Origin: Acidimicrobiales bacterium
GTDB lineage: Bacteria; Actinomycetota; Acidimicrobiia; Acidimicrobiales; DATDAH01
DNA: 64,000 nucleotides
Reading direction: 5' to 3'
Assembly: GCA_016794585.1 (NCBI GenBank)
Contig: JAEUJM010000001.1
Location: 215,061 to 279,060, forward strand
Both the position numbers and the translations under genes were made by a program. Below the pieces are notes generated by a model. The model saw nothing but the letters and a program-made list of their open reading frames with translations, was not told the DNA's origin and ran no database searches. Positions 45,534-56,928 of this stretch are shown here, piece after piece (position 1 is the stretch's first letter; every line of letters starts with the position of its first letter).

Positions 45534-46157
45534 GTGGACGCGTCCGCCCTGCTGGTCGTGCCCTCGTATCTGGTGGGCACGTTCCCCACCGGCCTGCTGG
45601 TCGGGCGCCGGGCGGGCCACGACCCGACCGCCGAGGGCTCGGGCAACCCCGGCGCCACCAACGTGGCGCGGGTGGCGGGCCGCAACGCCGGCGTGGTGGT
45701 GCTGCTCGTGGACCTCTTGAAAGGCGCGCTCCCGGCGGCCGTGGGCCTCGCGGTCGGCGGGACCCTCCTCGGCCTGGCCTGCGGCGCCGCCGCCGTGCTC
45801 GGCCACGTCGCCCCGGTGACCCGGCACTTCCGGGGCGGCAAGGGCGTGGCCACCGCCAGCGGGATGGTCATCGTGGTGTACCCGTTGCTGAGCCTCGCGG
45901 TCGGCGCGGTGTTCGTGACGACCGCACTAGTGGCGCGGCGGGTGTCGGTCGCGTCGATCGCCATGGCCCTCGCCCTCCCCGTCGTGCTGGCCCTCGGAGG
46001 GCGTCCACCCGCCGAGGTCGCGGTGGCCGCTGGTGTTTCGCTCTGCGTGATCGCCCGCCACCATGAGAACATCACCAGGCTCCGGCACGGCCAGGAGCCC
46101 GCGTTCCGCCTGTCCCGCGCCCCGAGCCACCCGAGCCCCCCGAGAGACGAGCCATGA
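45534..46157 (+). CDS. plsY: Acyl-phosphate:glycerol-3-phosphate acyltransferase
   Basis: 207 residues, five membrane helices. SGNPGATNVARVAGR is the phosphate-binding motif of PlsY, and GHVAPVTRHFRGGKGVATASG is the second active-site loop. ARHHENITRLRHGQE near the end is the third. It acylates glycerol-3-phosphate, the first step of membrane-lipid synthesis. Its stop overlaps the galU ATG (ATGA), so it is coupled to UDP-glucose synthesis. Confidence 0.95.
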   Translation: MDASALLVVPSYLVGTFPTGLLVGRRAGHDPTAEGSGNPGATNVARVAGRNAGVVVLLVDLLKGALPAAVGLAVGGTLLGLACGAAAVLGHVAPVTRHFRGGKGVATASGMVIVVYPLLSLAVGAVFVTTALVARRVSVASIAMALALPVVLALGGRPPAEVAVAAGVSLCVIARHHENITRLRHGQEPAFRLSRAPSHPSPPRDEP

Positions 46158-47053
46158 CCCACGCCTCCCCCACGGTCAAGAAGGCCGTGATCCCCGCCGC
46201 CGGCCTCGGCACCCGCTTCCTGCCGGCCACCAAGGCCCAGCCCAAGGAGATGCTGCCGATCATCGACCGGCCCGCCATCCAGTACGTGGTGGAGGAGGCG
46301 GTGCGGGCCGGCATCGACGACATCCTCATCATCACCGGACGGGGCAAGCGGGCCATCGAGGACCACTTCGACCGCAACTTCGAGCTGGAGTACTACCTCG
46401 AGCAGAAAGGCAAGACGGAGGACGTGGCCGACATCCGCGAGCTCGCCGAGCTGGCCGACATCCACTACGTCCGCCAGGGCGAGCCCCTCGGCCTCGGCCA
46501 CGCCGTGGCGGTGGCTCGCAAACACGTGGGGGACAACCCATTCGTCGTCATGTTGGGCGACGACATCATGGACGAGCGCTCCCAGGTCCTCGAGGGGATG
46601 ATCGGGGTCTACGAGCAGCGTCAGCGCTCGGTGGTGGCCTTGAAGGAGTTCCCCATCGAGGAGATCTCCTCGTACGGGTGTGCCCGGCCCGAGCCGGTCG
46701 AGGGCGACGACGGCCTCGTGCAGATCCTCGACATCGTCGAGAAGCCGGCCCCCGAGGTGGCCCCGTCCACCCTCGCGGTGATGGGTCGCTACGTCTTCAC
46801 CCCCGCCATCTTCGACTGCCTCGACCGGGTCGAGCCCGGCGTGGGCGGCGAGATCCAGCTGACCGACGCCATCGCCCTCCTCCTCGCCGAGGAGGACGTC
46901 TTCGGCTACGTGTTCGACGAGGGCCGCTACGACATCGGCCAGAAGCTCGACTACCTGCGGGCCACGGTCGAGCTCGCCGTCGACCGCGACGACCTCGGCG
47001 CCGACTTCCGGGCGTTCCTCGCCGACTTCGTCGAGCGCGAGAAGATCGTCTAG
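46154..47053 (+). CDS. galU: UTP-glucose-1-phosphate uridylyltransferase
   Basis: 299 residues. IPAAGLGTRFLPATKAQPKE is the nucleotide-binding signature with the conserved Arg and Lys. IIDRPAIQYVVEEAVRAGI, FVVMLGDDIMDE and DIVEKPAP follow. Product UDP-glucose feeds envelope polysaccharides and glycolipids. In many actinobacteria galU is followed by a moeA/glp gene, as here (2-bp gap). Confidence 0.96.
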   Translation: MTHASPTVKKAVIPAAGLGTRFLPATKAQPKEMLPIIDRPAIQYVVEEAVRAGIDDILIITGRGKRAIEDHFDRNFELEYYLEQKGKTEDVADIRELAELADIHYVRQGEPLGLGHAVAVARKHVGDNPFVVMLGDDIMDERSQVLEGMIGVYEQRQRSVVALKEFPIEEISSYGCARPEPVEGDDGLVQILDIVEKPAPEVAPSTLAVMGRYVFTPAIFDCLDRVEPGVGGEIQLTDAIALLLAEEDVFGYVFDEGRYDIGQKLDYLRATVELAVDRDDLGADFRAFLADFVEREKIV

Positions 47054-47055
47054 CC

Positions 47056-48284
47056 GTGCTGCCCCTCGACGAGGCCCGCGAGTTCGTGCTCGCCGGCTGC
47101 ACCGTCGGCCACCCCAAGGCGATCCCCCTCGCCGACGCCCTCGGCCTCGTCACCTCGGTCGACATCGACGCCGCCGAGGCGGTGCCTCCGTTCGACAACA
47201 CCGCCATGGACGGCTTCGCGGTCCGGGCGGCGGACACCGCGGGCGCCACGGCCGACGCCCCTGCCCGCCTGGCCGTCGTGGGCACCCTGGCCGCCGGCGC
47301 GCCCCCGGACCTCACGGTGGGCCCGGGCCAGGCGGTGCGCATCATGACCGGCGCGCCCCTCCCGGCGGGCGCCGACGCGGTCGTGATGGTCGAGCGCACG
47401 ACCCTCTCCGACGACGGCGCCACCGTGGCCGTCACCGTGGCCGTCGAGGTCGGGAACCACCTGCGGCGCGCCGGGGACGACCTCCAGGCGGGCCAGCAGG
47501 TGTTCCCCGCCGGCACCGCGCTCACGCCCGCCCACCTCGGGGTGCTCGCCAGCGTCGGGGTCCGCCGCGTCCCCGTCCACCCCCGGCCGCGGGTGGGGGT
47601 GGTGTCCACGGGCGACGAGCTCGTCGACGGCCCCGAGCCGCTCGGCCCGGGCCAGATCCGCGACTCCAACCGGCGCATGCTGCTGGCCCTGGTGGCCCGG
47701 GCGGACTGCGTGCCCGTGGACCTCGGCCGGATCGCCGACGACGAGGACGCCATCGCCGCCGCGTTCGAGGCCGGTGCCGCCGAGTGCGACGCCCTCATCT
47801 CCAGTGGCGGCGTGAGCATGGGCGACTTCGACTTCGTGAAGGTGGTCCTCGACCGCCTCGGGGACATGCGCTGGATGCAGGTGGCCATCAAGCCGGCCAA
47901 GCCGCTGGCCTTCGGCACCATCGCCGGCACACCGGTGTTCGGGCTGCCGGGCAACCCGGTGTCGTCGCTCGTGTCGTTCGAGCTGTTCGCCCGACCCGGC
48001 CTCCGCAAGATGATGGGGCACACGGAGCTCGACCGGACCCGCCTCACCGCCGTGGCCGACGACGACCTGCGCCGGCGCCCCGACGGCAAGACCCACTTCG
48101 CCCGGGTCGTCGCCACCTACGAGGACGGGGCGTTCCACGTCCGCCCGACCGGCGGCCAGGGCTCGCACCAGCTGGCGGCCACCGCGGCCGCCAACGCCCT
48201 CGCCGTGCTCCGTGACGGCGACGGGGTCGCCGCCGGTGGCAACGTCGAGATCGTGCCGCTGGGGGACCTCGGTACCCTGGGCTG

Positions 48285-48285
<1 letters not shown>
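47056..48285 (+). CDS. moeA: MoeA/gephyrin-like protein (molybdopterin molybdenumtransferase or Glp divisome scaffold)
   Basis: 409 residues from GTG 47056. VPPFDNTAMDGFAVR, VVSTGDELVDGPEP, SSGGVSMGDFDFVK and GLPGNPVSSLVSFELFARP are all conserved MoeA motifs, including the acidic MPT-binding residues. Enzymatically it would insert molybdate into adenylated molybdopterin. However galU-moeA next to a SepX/GLPR-like gene (50021) is the arrangement of Corynebacterium Glp, a MoeA-like scaffold of the divisome that binds GLPR and Wag31-linked FtsZ. Both functions are possible. The stop overlaps the moaA ATG. Confidence 0.92.
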
Positions 48286-49283
<998 letters not shown>

Positions 49284-49290
49284 CCGGCGA

Positions 49291-49806
49291 TCAGAGGCCG
49301 AGGCCGTCGTCCTCGTCGATGCCCAGCTCGGCGGCTCGTCGGTACGTGCCCGACCGTCCGCCCGTCTTCTCCCACAGGGCGATGTCGCCGATGACCATGC
49401 TGCGATCGGCCGACTTGCACATGTCGTAGATCGTGAGGGCCGCCACCGAGCAGGCGGTGAGGGCCTCCATCTCGACCCCGGTGCGGTCGACGGTCTCGAC
49501 GTGGGCCTCGACCTCGATGAAGGCGTCGGCGATCTGGAAGTTGACCAGGACCGAGCTGACCAGCAGCGGGTGGCACAGCGGGATCAGATCGGGTGCCCGC
49601 TTGGCGGCCTGGATCCCGGCCACCCGCGCCACCGAGAGCACGTCGCCCTTGCCGATGGCGCCCTTGGCCACGAGCGAGGTGGTCTCGGGGGCCATGTGCA
49701 CCCTGCCGCGGGCCACGGCCCGGCGGTGCGTCTGCTCCTTGGGGGCGACGTCGACCATGCGGGCACGGCCGAGCGGGTCCAGATGGGTGAGGCCACCGTC
49801 AGGCAT
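49291..49806 (-). CDS. moaC: Cyclic pyranopterin monophosphate synthase
   Basis: 171 residues from ATG 49806. LIPLCHPLLVSSVLV and TACSVAALTIYDMCKSADR contain the conserved substrate-binding residues and the KSADR lysine. It rearranges the MoaA product into cyclic pyranopterin monophosphate. TACACT 6 nt before the ATG suggests leaderless expression, independent of moaA, which is on the other strand. Confidence 0.96.
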   Translation of the reverse strand: MPDGGLTHLDPLGRARMVDVAPKEQTHRRAVARGRVHMAPETTSLVAKGAIGKGDVLSVARVAGIQAAKRAPDLIPLCHPLLVSSVLVNFQIADAFIEVEAHVETVDRTGVEMEALTACSVAALTIYDMCKSADRSMVIGDIALWEKTGGRSGTYRRAAELGIDEDDGLGL

Positions 49807-49812
49807 GGCGGG

Positions 49813-49818
49813 AGTGTA
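49813..49818 (-). promoter_or_regulatory. -10 hexamer TACACT, leaderless start of moaC
   Basis: TACACT lies exactly 6 nt before ATG 49806. Confidence 0.5.
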
Positions 49819-50020
49819 GTGGCGTCGTCCCCCGGGCCCCCGGGAGGCCCGTGCGGGCGGCACCTGCTCCTGCCCTCGTGACGGGGTTGCTAGTCTCCGT
49901 GTTGCATTTGTAGTAGAACTGCAATGTTCGTTGGCGGAACGCAACAGCCGCCCTGCCGGCCTCCGCAGCACCCAGCAGCATCCGCAGGACCCCTGTTCCC
50001 TCAGAAGGTGTGACTACGCG

Positions 50021-50776
50021 TTGACTCCGATCGTGCTCCTGATCCTCGTTGTGATGTGGGTGGCGGTGCTCTTGCCGCCCTACCTGCGCAACCGTGGGGG
50101 GAGCGGTTCGGGAAGTTCAGTGCATTCGTTCCGCCAGAAGCTCGACAGCCTCGAGCGCTCGGCGCCGAACGCCCGCTCGGGCGGGCACGTGTCCACCTAC
50201 CTGCCGGTCCACGGCCGCTCGGTGCAGGGACCCCAACCCCTGGACGGCCCCCTGCCCGCCGGCTCGCGCCACCCGCTCCAGGGCGGCGGCGGCCCCCGCC
50301 TGGTGCCCGCCCCCCAGGACGCCGGGCTCACCATCCTCGGTGCCAACGGCCTCCCGCTGCCCGAGCCCGAGCCCGAGGTCGAGGCCACGTACCTCCTGGC
50401 CCCGGCCCCCGATCTGCAGGTCGCGCCCGAGCCCGACGGCGAGCGTCGCCAGGGTCCGCCCGCGGCGGTCCTCTCCGCCCGTGCCGCCCGCAAGCGCCGG
50501 CGTGACGTGCTCTACACCCTGCTCGCGGCCAGCGCGGTCACGCTCCTGATGGGCCTCGTCCTCGGCACGCCCGCGCTGCTGCTCCACCTGCTCGTCGACG
50601 TGGCCCTCGGCGGCTACGTGTACCTGCTGATCACCATGCAGCGGTCCAAGGCCGAGCGCGACATCAAGGTGGCCTTCCTCCCGCACCAGAACCACGAGGC
50701 CGAGCCCTCCCGCCTCCTCGAGACCGGTGGCGGCTGGCAGCCTGGCGAGCCTCTCCTGCGCCAGAGCGCCAACTAG
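50021..50776 (+). CDS. sepX: SepX/GLPR-like divisome membrane protein
   Basis: About 251 residues from TTG 50021, chosen because it starts MTPIVLLILVVMWVAVLLPP, the expected N-terminal membrane helix with the motif VMWVAVLLPPYLRNR. AGAAGG-type sites are not optimally placed, so the start is tentative. Residues 30-150 are a Pro/Gly-rich cytoplasmic segment, and two closing helices lie near 165-212 (DVLYTLLAASAVTLLMGLVL, LLVDVALGGYVYLLI). This outline matches Streptomyces SepX and mycobacterial Rv0996 (GLPR), which bind the MoeA-like Glp in division. The nearby galU-moeA pair supports this. Confidence 0.7.
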   Translation: MTPIVLLILVVMWVAVLLPPYLRNRGGSGSGSSVHSFRQKLDSLERSAPNARSGGHVSTYLPVHGRSVQGPQPLDGPLPAGSRHPLQGGGGPRLVPAPQDAGLTILGANGLPLPEPEPEVEATYLLAPAPDLQVAPEPDGERRQGPPAAVLSARAARKRRRDVLYTLLAASAVTLLMGLVLGTPALLLHLLVDVALGGYVYLLITMQRSKAERDIKVAFLPHQNHEAEPSRLLETGGGWQPGEPLLRQSAN

Positions 50777-50803: not shown

Positions 50804-51520
50804 ATGCGGCGTGGCGTGGGGTGGGGCATCGGCATCGCCGTACTCGCCCTCGGCGTGGCGGCGGCGGGGTCGACCTTCGCCGGCGCGCAGGGTGACGACA
50901 CCCGGCGCGGCACCGACCCCCTGTCGGCCGAGGAGGTCCGGGCCGCGCTCGACGACGGCGGCGTCTCCCCCGAGTCGGGGGCACCCGAGTCAGCGGGCCC
51001 GGAATCCCTCGGAGCCAACGGCCTGCCCGAGCACCTCGTGCTGCTCGTCGAGCGCCACGTCGAGGACAAAGGCGCCGATGACCTGCGCCGGGCCGACGTC
51101 TACGAGTACTCCTACGCCGACGACACGCTGACCGTCTCGCTCGTCGACCTCGCCGACGGCACCGTCGACGACACGCAGGTCGTCCAGGGCACGCAGCTGC
51201 CCCTCGTGGAGGTCGAGGCGCAGCGGGCGCTCGACCTGCTCTTCGCCGATCCCGACTTCCGCGAGCGGCTCGACGCCGAGCACCTGCGAGCCACCGGAGC
51301 CCCCCTCGTCGATCCCGCCGCCGAGCTCATCGTCGAGCCGATCGTCTTCCTGGCGGAGGCGGTTCCCACCGTCGCCCAGGGCGAGGCGGCCGAGTGTGGC
51401 ATCCACCGGTGCGCCCAGTTCCTCATCCAGACCGACGATCACGTGCTCATCAACCTGTTCCCGCTGGTCGACCTCTCCGACGGCGTGGTGCTCACCGCCG
51501 ACGGTGTGGGGGGCACGTGA
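50804..51520 (+). CDS. Secreted protein matching the N2/N3 domains of copper amine oxidase
   Basis: 238 residues from ATG 50804. A signal peptide ends near residue 28 (AAAGSTFAGAQG). DPLSAEEVRAALDDGG resembles the DPLTAEEI-type opening of the copper amine oxidase N2 domain. The alternation DVYEYSYADDTLTVSLVDLA, then VVQGTQLPLVEVEAQRALDL and LFADPDFRERLDAEHLRATG parallels the N3 domain. No catalytic residue lies here. The downstream gene, coupled by GTGA, encodes only the catalytic domain, so the two may reconstitute one enzyme. Similarity is by motif pattern and needs profile confirmation. Confidence 0.6.
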   Translation: MRRGVGWGIGIAVLALGVAAAGSTFAGAQGDDTRRGTDPLSAEEVRAALDDGGVSPESGAPESAGPESLGANGLPEHLVLLVERHVEDKGADDLRRADVYEYSYADDTLTVSLVDLADGTVDDTQVVQGTQLPLVEVEAQRALDLLFADPDFRERLDAEHLRATGAPLVDPAAELIVEPIVFLAEAVPTVAQGEAAECGIHRCAQFLIQTDDHVLINLFPLVDLSDGVVLTADGVGGT

Positions 51521-52698
51521 GCGCCCGCCGCATGCTCGGGACCGGGCTGGTCGCCGTCCTGCTCGGTGCGCTCGCGCTCGTCCCCGTCCTCGCCCCGCGG
51601 GCCGATGCCGCCGGCGAAGGCGGGTGTTCGGTGGACTTCCAGATCGACGAGACGCTGCCCAACGGCGGCTCGTGGTCCATGTGCTGGGAGAGCCGGGCCC
51701 GGGAGGGCATCGTCCTGCACGACGTCACCTACACGCCCCCAGGGGGCTCTGCCACCCTCGTGCTGGCCCAGATGAACCTCTCCCAGATCCACGTGCCCTA
51801 CGACAGCAACGTGGCCCGCTTCCACGACGTGTCCGACTTCGGCCTCGGCTTCAACTTCGACGAGCTGACCGCCGCCGAGTGCCCGAACGGGGTCCTGTTG
51901 AGCGACGGCACCCAGGACGTGCTGTGCCGGCAGGTGCTGGCGACGGGATACGCCTACAAGGCCTACGACGACCAGGCCCAGGGGGAGTCGCTGAACCTCT
52001 TCAGCGTCTCGGCCATCGGGGCCTACAACTACATCGTCCAGTGGACCTTCGATGACGACGGCACCATCCACCCGGCGGTGGGGGCCACCGGCCAGCTCCA
52101 GATGTACGGCGGCGGCCCGGCCACCGGGTGGCACGTCGGCGCCAACGGCTACGCCGTCGCCCACATGCACGACTTCTACTGGCGACTCGACTTCGACCTC
52201 GCCGGCACGGGCGCCGACCGCGTGCAGGAGCTGGCCGCCGCCCCCAGCGCGGACCGCCAGACCTTCACCAACACCCGCACGGCCTTCACCACCGAGCAGG
52301 CCCGGCGGGTGCAGCCCCGGAGCTTCCGGTCGTGGCGGGTCATCGACACCGCCACCACCAACGCCGACGGCCACCGCATCTCCTACGAGCTGCTGCCCAG
52401 CACCGACGCCATCTTCCGGGGCCCCAGCTACGAGCCCTTCACCCACAACGAGCTGTACGCCACCCGCTTCGCCGCCTGCGAGGTCTTCGCCTCGCACAAC
52501 TCGACCTCGGGAGGCTGCGGCGGCGACCTGTCGGACTTCGCCAACGGCCAGAGCCTGGGGGGCGCCGACGTGGTGCTGTGGTACGGCACCTCGTTCCACC
52601 ACCTGCCCCGTGACGAGGACGAGGACGTGATGGACGCCCACTGGAGCGGCTTCTCCCTCGTGCCCCGGGACCTCACCGCCACCTACCCGACCCCCTGA
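51517..52698 (+). CDS. Secreted copper amine oxidase-like catalytic domain
   Basis: 393 residues from GTG 51517, with a signal peptide to about residue 31. Copper amine oxidase features: RFHDVSDFGLG with the base-equivalent Asp104, SAIGAYNYIVQWTF where Tyr170 aligns with the TPQ cofactor tyrosine, HMHDFYWRLDFDL with copper ligands His216 and His218, and FHHLPRDEDEDVM with His362 near the third ligand. In E. coli the cofactor motif is NYD; here it is AYN, so the neighbouring Asn and Asp are lost and topaquinone formation is uncertain. N-terminal domains are missing and seem to be in the upstream gene. Confidence 0.78.
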   Translation: MSARRMLGTGLVAVLLGALALVPVLAPRADAAGEGGCSVDFQIDETLPNGGSWSMCWESRAREGIVLHDVTYTPPGGSATLVLAQMNLSQIHVPYDSNVARFHDVSDFGLGFNFDELTAAECPNGVLLSDGTQDVLCRQVLATGYAYKAYDDQAQGESLNLFSVSAIGAYNYIVQWTFDDDGTIHPAVGATGQLQMYGGGPATGWHVGANGYAVAHMHDFYWRLDFDLAGTGADRVQELAAAPSADRQTFTNTRTAFTTEQARRVQPRSFRSWRVIDTATTNADGHRISYELLPSTDAIFRGPSYEPFTHNELYATRFAACEVFASHNSTSGGCGGDLSDFANGQSLGGADVVLWYGTSFHHLPRDEDEDVMDAHWSGFSLVPRDLTATYPTP

Positions 52699-52711: not shown

Positions 52712-53164
52712 TCAATACTGCATGAACACCTGGACGGTGAAGACCCGGTTGCCACGCCAGGCGACGCCCGTCCCCATGTAGTTCCAGCGGGGGTCCAAGA
52801 TGTTGGCCCGGTGGCCGGCCGAGTTCAGGTAGGCCTGGTGCACCTGCTCGATGGAGCCGCCGTAACCGACGTTCTCGGCCAGCGAGCGCCACTGGTAGCT
52901 GATGCCACTCGGCAGGTTCGAGTGCTTGAGGGTGTTCTGCGAGGCGAGGTACTCGGCCCACGCCTGGGCCTTCTGGTCGAGCTGCAGGTTGTCCCGCAGG
53001 TAGCTGCGGCCGTACTGCGCCCTGGTCTGGTTGACCAGCTGCGCCACGCGCGCCTGCTCGGACGACTGGCAGGCCGTGAGCGTCGATCCCATCAGCAGGA
53101 CCAGCAGGGTGGCGGCCGCCAAGCGCAACACCCGGGTCCCTCTCGTCTTGGTTCCCAGTTCCAT
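52712..53164 (-). CDS. CAP (SCP/PR1)-domain lipoprotein
   Basis: 150 residues from ATG 53164. A lipobox LTAC (Cys about 32) follows the signal helix. The CAP domain has ARVAQLVNQTRAQYG, LQLDQKAQAWAEYLASQN, SLAENVGYG and SAGHRANILDPRWNYMGTGV, the classical conserved boxes with His and Glu. Function of bacterial CAP proteins is mostly unknown (envelope or sterol/lipid binding). It ends 14 bp from the amine oxidase stop, convergent. Confidence 0.92.
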   Translation of the reverse strand: MELGTKTRGTRVLRLAAATLLVLLMGSTLTACQSSEQARVAQLVNQTRAQYGRSYLRDNLQLDQKAQAWAEYLASQNTLKHSNLPSGISYQWRSLAENVGYGGSIEQVHQAYLNSAGHRANILDPRWNYMGTGVAWRGNRVFTVQVFMQY

Positions 53165-54106: not shown

Positions 54107-54128
54107 GCATGTACAGGTGTGTACATGC
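54107..54128. promoter_or_regulatory. Perfect 9-bp-arm palindrome, candidate operator
   Basis: GCATGTACA-GGTG-TGTACATGC lies 18 bp upstream of the 54088 start and 109 bp before the large surface-protein gene. Symmetry and size fit a dimeric repressor site shared by two divergent genes. Confidence 0.6.
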
Positions 54129-54237
54129 ACCCGGGCGGACCCTAGCGCGGTGCCCGGGATGGTGCAGGCGGTTGTCGTCGGCGCGTCTACGATCGGCCGA
54201 CCGGTGCGACCGCGCCGAACGAGTGGGGGTGGCCACG

Positions 54238-56928
54238 GTGAAGCGCAGGACCGATGTGCACTGGGCGCTGACGGCCGTCGGGACGCTCTTCATCACCCTG
54301 CTGGCCGCGGGTGCGCCCGCAGCCGAAGCGGCGTCACCGGTCTGCTCCGTGGTCGACCAGGTGACGGTCAGCACCGGGGGATCGAACGTCAACGTGTCCT
54401 ACGACGGTGACGGGAGTCGGATGGCCTTCGTCTCCGATCGCAACTACGTCGGCACCAATGCGGACGGCAACAACGAGATCTTCGTCTACGACGTCGAGAC
54501 CACCACCTTCACCCAGGTGACCACCACGACGGGCTCCGGCGGGGTCAACGTGCCGTCGATCTCCGCCGACGGCCAGCGCGTCGCTTTCCAGTCGAGCAAG
54601 AACCTCACGGGCTCGAACAGCGACGGCAACAACGAGATCTTCCTCTGGGACGCCGTCGGTCCCTCCCTGACCCAGGTGACGACCTCACCCACCGGCCGGA
54701 CCAACGCCGCCCCCAAGTTGGCGGCCAACGGCACCCACGTGGCCTTCTCCTCCGATGCCGACCTCACGAGCGGAGGCAACTCGGACCTGAATCAGGAGAT
54801 CTTCCGGTGGGCGGTGGCCGGGGCCGCCACCACCCAGGTGACGAACACCACCGGAGGCATCAACGGGAACCCGGCCATCTCCGCGGACGGATCGATGGTC
54901 GCCTTCCGCTCGAACCGTGACATCGGCGGCGCCAACAGTGAGGGCAACAACGAGATCTTCCTGTGGAACGCGTCCGGACCGGCCACCACCGCGGTCACGA
55001 CGGCCGCGAGCGGCGCCAGCGACAGCCCGTCGCTGTCTGCCGACGGCAGCCGGATCGCCTTCCGGTCGACCGCCAACCTCGGTGGGGGAAACGCAGATGC
55101 CAACCAGGAGATCTTCCTGTGGGACGCCACCGGGCCCACCATCACCCAGGTCACCGCCACCACCGGCGGGTCGAGCGACGGGGCGTCGCTGGCGGCCGAC
55201 GGCACCCGCCTCGCCTTCAAGTCCAGCCGTGACCTCACCGGCGCCAACAGCGATCTGACCAATGAGATCTTCGCCTGGGACGAGGCGGACGGCATCACCC
55301 AGATCACCGCCACCCCCGTCGGCGGAGGCGGCAACCGGGCGCCCGCCATCGCCCGGGACGGCAGCAGCATCGCCTTCGAGTCCGACCGCGACGTCACCGG
55401 CTCGAACAGCGACCGCAACTACGAGCAGTTCCGCACGGCCTGCGGCCTCGAGGTGACCAAGTCCGCCGACCAGACCACCGCAGTCATCGGGGGCACGATC
55501 GACTACCACGTGACGGTGCACAACGGCGGGCCCTTCACCCTCACGGGCCTGTACGTCGACGACCCCGGGGCCCCGGGGTGCTCGCAGCCCCTGGCCGACC
55601 TGGCGAGCGGGCAGTCGGTCACCGTGGACTGCACCTTCGTGCCCTCCCTCGCCGATCTCGGCACCCACACCAACGTGGCCACCGCGGACGGGGACCAGAG
55701 CCCGCCCGTGGCGTCGAACCAGGTGGACGTCGCGGTCACCTACCCCGCGGACACCGGCTCGGTCGCCGGTGTGGTGACCGACGAGGTCTCGAACGCACCG
55801 CTCCCCGGCATCTGGGTGGCCGCCCTGCGGACGTCCGACTTCTCCCTCGCGGGCGGCGCGGTCGCCGACGGTGACGGTGCGTTCGCATCCGTGCTGCCAG
55901 CGGGCTCCTACTTCCTCTACCTGATCGACCCGACCGCCGCGCACGGGGCAGGCTTCCATGGCCGACCGACGCCCACGCTGGTGGTCGTCGGGGACGGTGC
56001 CCAGGAGGCGGTGGCGGCCGAGATGGCGCCGACGCGCGGGCAGATCGCCGGCACCATCACCGACCAGGTGAGCGGGGACCCGCTCGAGGGTGCGATCGCG
56101 CTGAGCATCGGCGGCCCCTCCTCGTCGCCGGAGGCGGGCGTGGTGACGGGTCCGTCGGGCGAGTTCACCCTTCCCGATCTCCCCGCCGGCAACCACTGGG
56201 TCGGCTACGTCGACCCCACCGGGGCGCACACCCCGGAGTTCCACCCGCACTCGCCCAACGTCCCGAATGCCACGCCGGTGGTGGTCGCCGGTGGGTCGAC
56301 CACGGTCGCCGACGGGTCGCTCCCGAGGCAGACCGTCACCCCCGGCGGGGAGCTGCTGACGGGCACGGTGACCGACGCCGCCACGGGGGATCCGCTGCCC
56401 GAGATCCTGGTCGTCGCCCTGCGTGCCGCGGACTACCAGTCGGTGCGCACGACCTTCACCGACGGAGCGGGCGAGTACACCCTCGACCTGGTCGCCGGGG
56501 ACTACCGGCTCGCCTTCGTGGCCCTCGACGGGCGCCACCACATGCAGTGGTACGACGGGCTGCCGAACACGGGCCTGGGTGACTCCGTCATCGTCACCGC
56601 CCCTGAGACGGCCGACGCCGCCCTCGTCCCGGCGCTCGGGTCCATGGCCGGCACCGTCACCGCGGATCCCGGGGGCGTCCCGCTCCCGGGCGCGTGGGTG
56701 GTGGCCATCGGCCCGCAGGGCATCGTCGCCGGCGCGGTGACGGGGGCGGACGGTGCCTACACCATCCACGGGCTGCCTGCAGGGGTCTACCGGGCCACCT
56801 ACCTCGACCTCACCGGCGGGCGCGCCCAGGAGTACTGGCCCGACAGCCCCACCTACGACGGGGGGTCGGACCTCGTGATCGCCGGAGGCTCGACGACCAC
56901 GGCCGACGCCGTGCTCGGCGCTCCCTGA
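54238..56928 (+). CDS. Secreted TolB-propeller/DUF11/Cna-B repeat surface protein
   Basis: 896 residues from GTG 54238, with an SD-like GGGGG upstream. The signal peptide ends near 33 (AAGAPAAEAA). Seven repeats of about 50 residues with the pattern ADGxxVAFxS, then NNEIFLWD form a TolB-like beta-propeller (about 40-400). A DUF11 domain (VTKSADQTTAVIGGTIDYHV) follows, then four Cna-B-like carboxypeptidase-regulatory domains (GTVTDAATGDPLPEI is an example). There is no sortase motif or membrane anchor, so it is likely exported and held non-covalently. Role is probably adhesion or binding of carbohydrate; this is inference. Confidence 0.9.
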   Translation: MKRRTDVHWALTAVGTLFITLLAAGAPAAEAASPVCSVVDQVTVSTGGSNVNVSYDGDGSRMAFVSDRNYVGTNADGNNEIFVYDVETTTFTQVTTTTGSGGVNVPSISADGQRVAFQSSKNLTGSNSDGNNEIFLWDAVGPSLTQVTTSPTGRTNAAPKLAANGTHVAFSSDADLTSGGNSDLNQEIFRWAVAGAATTQVTNTTGGINGNPAISADGSMVAFRSNRDIGGANSEGNNEIFLWNASGPATTAVTTAASGASDSPSLSADGSRIAFRSTANLGGGNADANQEIFLWDATGPTITQVTATTGGSSDGASLAADGTRLAFKSSRDLTGANSDLTNEIFAWDEADGITQITATPVGGGGNRAPAIARDGSSIAFESDRDVTGSNSDRNYEQFRTACGLEVTKSADQTTAVIGGTIDYHVTVHNGGPFTLTGLYVDDPGAPGCSQPLADLASGQSVTVDCTFVPSLADLGTHTNVATADGDQSPPVASNQVDVAVTYPADTGSVAGVVTDEVSNAPLPGIWVAALRTSDFSLAGGAVADGDGAFASVLPAGSYFLYLIDPTAAHGAGFHGRPTPTLVVVGDGAQEAVAAEMAPTRGQIAGTITDQVSGDPLEGAIALSIGGPSSSPEAGVVTGPSGEFTLPDLPAGNHWVGYVDPTGAHTPEFHPHSPNVPNATPVVVAGGSTTVADGSLPRQTVTPGGELLTGTVTDAATGDPLPEILVVALRAADYQSVRTTFTDGAGEYTLDLVAGDYRLAFVALDGRHHMQWYDGLPNTGLGDSVIVTAPETADAALVPALGSMAGTVTADPGGVPLPGAWVVAIGPQGIVAGAVTGADGAYTIHGLPAGVYRATYLDLTGGRAQEYWPDSPTYDGGSDLVIAGGSTTTADAVLGAP

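What the first reader, a model, noticed from the sequence alone, without database searches (positions are those of the whole stretch)
50804..52698. Split copper amine oxidase with an altered cofactor motif
Two coupled secreted genes (GTGA overlap) carry N2/N3-like and catalytic copper-amine-oxidase domains separately; the family is normally one chain. Copper ligands (His216, His218, about His362) and the catalytic-base Asp104 are kept, but the tyrosine that becomes topaquinone sits in AYN instead of NYD. Either the cofactor forms in a new context or the protein has another function.
Basis: partly seen in the sequence, partly recalled or inferred. Interest (0 to 1): 0.75.

Follow-up and report, generated by a model that had tools for sequence, protein, structure and literature searches.

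The report
Two-chain copper amine oxidase, altered motif
Two overlapping genes encode the front part and the catalytic part of a copper amine oxidase as separate proteins that are predicted to be exported, and related pairs occur in three bacterial phyla with the copper site and the cofactor tyrosine kept but the textbook cofactor motif replaced, so this is likely a working two-part enzyme.

The parts
50804..51520 (+). Gene 1, 238 aa: N2-N3 chain of the copper amine oxidase
50804..50881 (+). Predicted export signal of gene 1 (residues 1-26; boundary by eye)
   Evidence: Hydrophobic 12-residue mean 2.6; helix 8-21 in the model
51517..51520 (+). GTGA overlap of stop and start
   Evidence: Sequence
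51517..52698 (+). Gene 2, 393 aa: catalytic chain of the copper amine oxidase
51517..51609 (+). Predicted export signal of gene 2 (residues 1-31; boundary by eye)
   Evidence: Hydrophobic 12-residue mean 3.1; helix 3-21 in the model
51799..51801 (+). Tyr95, aligned with the conserved Tyr of the VPY motif
   Evidence: 121 of 121, 85 of 85
51826..51828 (+). Asp104, aligned with the catalytic base
   Evidence: 119 of 121, 85 of 85
52021..52029 (+). Ala169-Tyr170-Asn171: cofactor tyrosine in AYN instead of NY[DE]
   Evidence: Sequence; survey
52162..52170 (+). His216 and His218, copper ligands (HxH)
   Evidence: 121 of 121
52600..52602 (+). His362, third copper ligand
   Evidence: 120 of 121, one gap; 85 of 85

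Best explanation
The two overlapping genes encode a copper amine oxidase in two chains, an N2-N3 chain and a catalytic chain, which are predicted to be exported and likely assemble into an oxidase whose Tyr170 would become topaquinone despite the altered AYN motif. Shown here: the homology of both chains, the conserved gene pair, the kept copper ligands, base and tyrosine, and the lost Asn and Asp/Glu of the motif. Inferred: translation is coupled through GTGA; the exported chains pair as N2-N3 and the catalytic domain do in one-chain enzymes; copper on His216, His218 and His362 drives self-oxidation of Tyr170; the quinone then deaminates an extracellular primary amine (free amine or protein lysine) to an aldehyde, ammonia and H2O2, with Asp104 as base. 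Also inferred: residues special to this branch, such as His92 and His375, which are replaced in the degenerate copies, take over the cofactor-positioning job of the missing Asn.
For: Gene 2 is a full PF01179 domain with a high-confidence CAO fold. Gene 1 matches CAO N2-N3 by profile-profile alignment with flat controls and by fold. 71 of 80 kept loci from three phyla have gene 1 upstream on the same strand; the other nine lie in assemblies that hold another kept locus with gene 1 (record names); 5 of 5 further phylum hits have the pair. Active-site residues other than HxH, which was the selection rule, are kept in 85 of 85 rows; in degenerate sister copies, ligands and base are lost together and the Tyr mostly (6 of 34 keep it). 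Hydrophobic leaders: 117 of 120 gene-1 and 113 of 121 gene-2 proteins against 20 of 241 internal segments. AGAO N381A, with Ala at the same place, still makes topaquinone (PMC9491219 passages).
Against: No biochemical evidence. In HPAO-1 the Asn-to-Ala mutant forms only 5-10% topaquinone (PMC3382800 passage); in AGAO biogenesis is 1/180 and kcat 1/160, so AYN should work poorly in a standard site. Pfam N2/N3 models do not match gene 1. No complex was modelled. Nine kept loci lack an upstream gene 1 (for L067 the flank is short). The family is rare near the window: 1 of 395 genomes of its class, 6 of 396 of its phylum, own genome counted in both. Two of 121 rows show D or E at the Tyr column (not examined, perhaps misaligned).
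Confidence: 0.68

Rival explanations
1. The catalytic chain binds copper but makes no topaquinone: Tyr170 stays unmodified or carries another modification, and the protein is a copper carrier, another kind of copper oxidase or a binding protein.
For: Both residues of the textbook consensus beside the Tyr are changed; the matching single mutants form topaquinone slowly or in small yield.
Against: The Asp base, the Tyr, the VPY Tyr and all three copper His are kept together in 85 of 85 rows (HxH by selection), which a copper carrier would not need; they decay together in the degenerate sisters.
Confidence: 0.17
2. The catalytic chain works alone as a dimer, and gene 1 is a separate helper (export chaperone, inhibitor or anchor) rather than a subunit.
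For: Nine of 80 kept loci have no upstream gene 1. No interaction was modelled or tested.
Against: Gene 1 is homologous to the domains that are covalently attached in one-chain CAOs and keeps its place directly upstream in 71 of 80 loci.
Confidence: 0.13
3. A sequencing error or frameshift has split one ordinary CAO gene.
For: The family is normally one chain, and the two ORFs overlap by 4 nt in different frames.
Against: The same arrangement occurs in 71 of 80 loci and 5 of 5 further genomes. Each chain has its own hydrophobic leader. Homologues up to 88% (gene 2) and 94% (gene 1) identical are recorded as separate proteins of matching length.
Confidence: 0.01

Closest known systems
Bacterial one-chain CAOs (Arthrobacter globiformis AGAO, E. 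coli amine oxidase; NCBIfam PRK11504)
   Same: Catalytic fold, three copper His, Asp base, precursor Tyr and the conserved VPY Tyr; N2-N3 fold in gene 1
   Different: Two chains instead of one; no NY[DE] consensus; extra conserved Cys37 and Cys56, His92, Trp205, Trp222 and His375; predicted export
N381A mutant of AGAO (7wir, 7wis)
   Same: Ala in the place before the cofactor Tyr; it is the best solved-sequence match of gene 2 and still forms topaquinone
   Different: A laboratory mutant of a one-chain enzyme with Asp after the Tyr; slow biogenesis and turnover
CAO of graspetide group 41 (PMC13097080, one passage)
   Same: A CAO that co-occurs with a peptide-modification cluster, outside plain amine catabolism
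   Different: Whether that CAO belongs to this branch was not tested; no recurrent ATP-grasp neighbour was recognised among the neighbour clusters seen here (judged by eye)

Membership tests
Copper amine oxidase catalytic domain (PF01179) | Profile match above the curated cut-off | tested here: met
   148 bits, cut-off 27
Copper amine oxidase catalytic domain (PF01179) | Three copper-binding His | tested here: met
   His216, His218, His362 in the window; 121, 121 and 120 of 121 homologue rows
Copper amine oxidase catalytic domain (PF01179) | Catalytic-base Asp and precursor Tyr | tested here: met
   Asp104 and Tyr170; 119 of 121 each, 85 of 85 each
Canonical topaquinone CAO | Consensus Asn-Tyr-Asp/Glu at the cofactor Tyr (as stated in PMC3382800) | tested here: not met
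   AYN in the window; Asn before the Tyr in 0 of 85 branch rows against 29 of 29 one-chain rows
Canonical topaquinone CAO | N2, N3 and catalytic domains in one chain | tested here: not met
   Two ORFs; no gene-1 match inside 121 gene-2 proteins
Canonical topaquinone CAO | Topaquinone cofactor and amine oxidase activity | not testable with these tools
   Needs purified protein
Canonical topaquinone CAO | Dimer of catalytic domains with N2-N3 attached | not testable with these tools
CAO N2/N3 domains (PF02727, PF02728) | Curated profile match | tested here: not met
   0 families for the window protein; 1 of 65 members touches N2 at E 0.21
CAO N2/N3 domains (PF02727, PF02728) | Homology and fold of the N2-N3 region | tested here: met

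The most novel reading that the evidence does not exclude
A whole branch of copper amine oxidases, spread over three phyla, has abandoned the one-chain plan and the NY[DE] cofactor signature. It builds an extracellular quinone enzyme from an N2-N3 chain and a catalytic chain, and in Thiothrix-type bacteria adds a dead CAO chain as partner. A different set of residues around the tyrosine (His92, His375, Ala or Trp before the Tyr) steers cofactor formation, helped in those bacteria by an adjacent MauG-type di-haem enzyme.
Probability: 0.3. Interest if true: 0.85.

Novelty: new variant of a known kind. Interest (0 to 1): 0.7.

Why it matters
Topaquinone formation is a textbook case of a protein making its own cofactor, and the Asn and Asp/Glu beside the tyrosine are described as its conserved consensus (PMC3382800). 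A natural branch that lacks both but keeps the other active-site residues is a ready test of what self-processing really needs. The two-chain build would let the N2-N3 part be studied and exchanged apart from the catalytic part. The degenerate chain in some lineages is a natural negative control and may be a case of a dead subunit in a quinone enzyme.

Tried and rejected
Frameshift or sequencing error: rejected by the arrangement in 71 of 80 loci. Pfam and single-sequence searches for gene 1 found nothing useful; a profile search of solved-structure sequences gave only weak hits, best E 0.05, to a yeast CAO. Conserved neighbours: none recognised for the Actinomycetota or Chloroflexota pairs, judged by eye from six-frame ORFs that include spurious frames. 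A MauG-type enzyme as a general requirement: not borne out for the window organism, whose assembly (98.41% complete) has no CCP_MauG match. Plasmid collection: 61 records match gene 2, all under 60% identity; the 30 listed lie at 24.0-27.1%; none matches gene 1. Filamentous growth: many of the named genera (Thiothrix, Leucothrix, Herpetosiphon, Streptomyces, Streptosporangium) are filamentous by recall; no background test was made, and only the best 80 of 301 relatives were kept, so this is a lead only.

Literature: ten searches listed no paper that, by title and abstract opening, describes a two-chain CAO or a natural branch without the Asn; several lists were capped (for example 12 of 72 and 12 of 30), and the library is open-access only. 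Passages of four papers were read, no whole text.

Full report
Observation. Gene 1 (50804-51520, 238 aa) and gene 2 (51517-52698, 393 aa) overlap by GTGA on the + strand. Gene 1 starts 27 nt after a same-strand ORF without a Pfam match (49931-50776, start uncertain).

The pair is conserved. In a scan of named genomes 301 stretches encode relatives of gene 2, and the best 80 were kept: 41 Pseudomonadota, 31 Actinomycetota, 8 Chloroflexota. Of the 80, 71 have a gene-1 homologue upstream on the same strand, with the first matched CAO residue 12-228 nt after its end; 9 have none. By record names all nine lie in assemblies that hold another kept locus with gene 1. The five further hits in the phylum all have the pair. 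Among 121 gene-2 proteins (the window protein and the 120 listed of 414 homologues), none has a gene-1 match or more than 30 residues beyond the model at the N-terminus; 44 have C-terminal tails over 40 residues. Where a source gives a name, gene 2 is mostly 'primary-amine oxidase' and gene 1 mostly 'hypothetical protein'; two gene-1 relatives are labelled Cu2+-containing amine oxidase. The family is patchy: 1 of 395 genomes of the window's class and 6 of 396 of its phylum reach E 1e-50, the window's own genome counted in both.

The motif. In the 121 proteins His216, His218 and Tyr95 are kept in 121, His362 in 120 (one gap), Asp104 and Tyr170 in 119. The residue before the Tyr is A 67, Q 22, E 11, D 8, M 7, S 2, T 2, P 1, N 1; after it N 98, C 22, D 1. 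In 85 rows (84 from the named loci and the window) chosen for keeping HxH, Tyr95, Asp104, Tyr170, Tyr172 and His362 are 85 of 85. The residue before the Tyr is A 41, W 31, E 5, S 5, Q 2, R 1 and never N; the residue after it takes 12 types. In 29 one-chain rows of the window's order it is N in 29 before and E or D in 29 after. Eight one-chain CAOs from plasmid records (Archaea, Alphaproteobacteria, Actinomycetota) and the genome's own one-chain copy also read NY[DE]. The loss of the consensus is thus a property of the branch, while the Tyr is held.

Tree. With 147 rows (two short pieces of a broken gene left out) the branch and the one-chain rows separate with SH-aLRT 100. In an 80-row subset with nine further one-chain CAOs support is 100/100. 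One-chain sampling is narrow, the separating branch is long and flagged by the program, and the root is unknown; whether one chain or two came first is open.

The degenerate chain. In 32 loci (31 Pseudomonadota, one Caldilineaceae) the first CAO gene after gene 1 is one without HxH, and an HxH copy lies in the same locus. Over 35 such rows, of which two are pieces of one broken gene, none of the 34 with a letter keeps either His of HxH or the Asp; 6 of 34 keep the Tyr and 17 of 34 the third His. They form one clade (SH-aLRT 100; 100/99). The window genome has none: its only other PF01179 match is the one-chain CAO. His92 (83 of 85), Ala190 (85 of 85) and His375 (85 of 85) are near-fixed in HxH copies but not among the three commonest residues of the degenerate ones; Asn219 (84 of 85) is kept in 11 of 35. 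Cys37, Cys56 and Trp222 are kept in both sets. I read the first set as active-site residues special to this branch; no distances were measured. In 16 of the 24 such loci with at least 1 kb beyond the last CAO gene, a di-haem peroxidase gene follows, in 15 of them with a YtkA-like gene before it (one representative of each confirmed by Pfam as CCP_MauG and YtkA). The window genome has no CCP_MauG match.

Export. A hydrophobic N-terminal stretch occurs in 117 of 120 gene-1 and 113 of 121 gene-2 proteins, against 20 of 241 internal segments. A similar but not identical test found one ahead of N2 in 3 of 25 one-chain relatives. No dedicated signal-peptide predictor was run. One long relative carries TSP3, P-proprotein and Ig-like modules after the catalytic domain (L058). 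One-chain CAOs in 4 of 8 plasmid stretches sit beside permeases or an aldehyde dehydrogenase (one of the eight has no annotation), as fits amine catabolism. None was recognised among the window ORFs that I scanned.

Mechanism. Topaquinone forms by copper-driven self-oxidation of the Tyr. In AGAO, N381A still forms it, at 1/180 of the rate, with kcat 1/160 and a flipped cofactor (PMC9491219 passages). In HPAO-1, Asn404Ala leaves 5-10% topaquinone and a change of the residue after the Tyr (Glu406 to Gln) slows biogenesis about tenfold (PMC3382800 passages). So the window motif is compatible with the cofactor but should be poor in a standard site; a branch with these residues as its natural state has probably compensated. 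I put 0.68 on a two-chain topaquinone enzyme, 0.17 on a copper protein without topaquinone and 0.13 on a free-standing catalytic chain with a helper. The physiological role (surface protein cross-linking, or oxidation of free amines) is not resolved.

Novelty. Gene 2 is a member of PF01179, but two tested traits of canonical CAOs, the NY[DE] consensus and the single chain, are not met, so I file the pair as a new variant. Ten searches of an open-access library listed no paper on it by title and abstract opening, several lists being capped; the 2025 CAO tree paper deals with plants and animals in the passages read.

Noticed in passing
L039 4736-5896, L041 4796-5956, L063 4643-5956 and 29 further loci: A CAO-fold gene without the HxH copper ligands and Asp base follows gene 1 and accompanies an intact catalytic gene in Pseudomonadota and one Caldilineaceae; one clade, possibly a dead partner subunit.
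   Followed up: partly
L044 8735-10030, L076 8310-8822 and similar: A CCP_MauG di-haem peroxidase gene, usually after a YtkA-like gene, follows the CAO genes in 16 of 24 Gammaproteobacteria-type loci with enough downstream sequence.
   Followed up: partly
Gene-2 homologues (20-odd proteins such as those reading CIGAYCYV): A subgroup has Cys both four residues before and one after the cofactor Tyr (CxxxYC); two Cys flanking the tyrosine could allow a disulfide or a thioether there.
   Followed up: no
L049 (plasmid pTfr446 of Thiothrix fructosivorans): A complete set of N2-N3, degenerate and catalytic genes lies on a plasmid, next to a second set on the chromosome (L045).
   Followed up: no
52712-53164 (-) and 54109-56928 (+): Other probably exported proteins lie downstream: a CAP-domain protein and a 939-aa protein with PD40, DUF11 and carboxypeptidase-regulatory-like domains.
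   Followed up: no
46063-49971: Molybdenum-cofactor genes lie upstream (MoaA and MoaC by Pfam; a MoeA-like ORF by eye); no link to the amine oxidase is evident.
   Followed up: no
G000:C13:353112-354320 (L001): The same genome holds an ordinary one-chain CAO with GNYEY and no obvious hydrophobic leader.
   Followed up: partly
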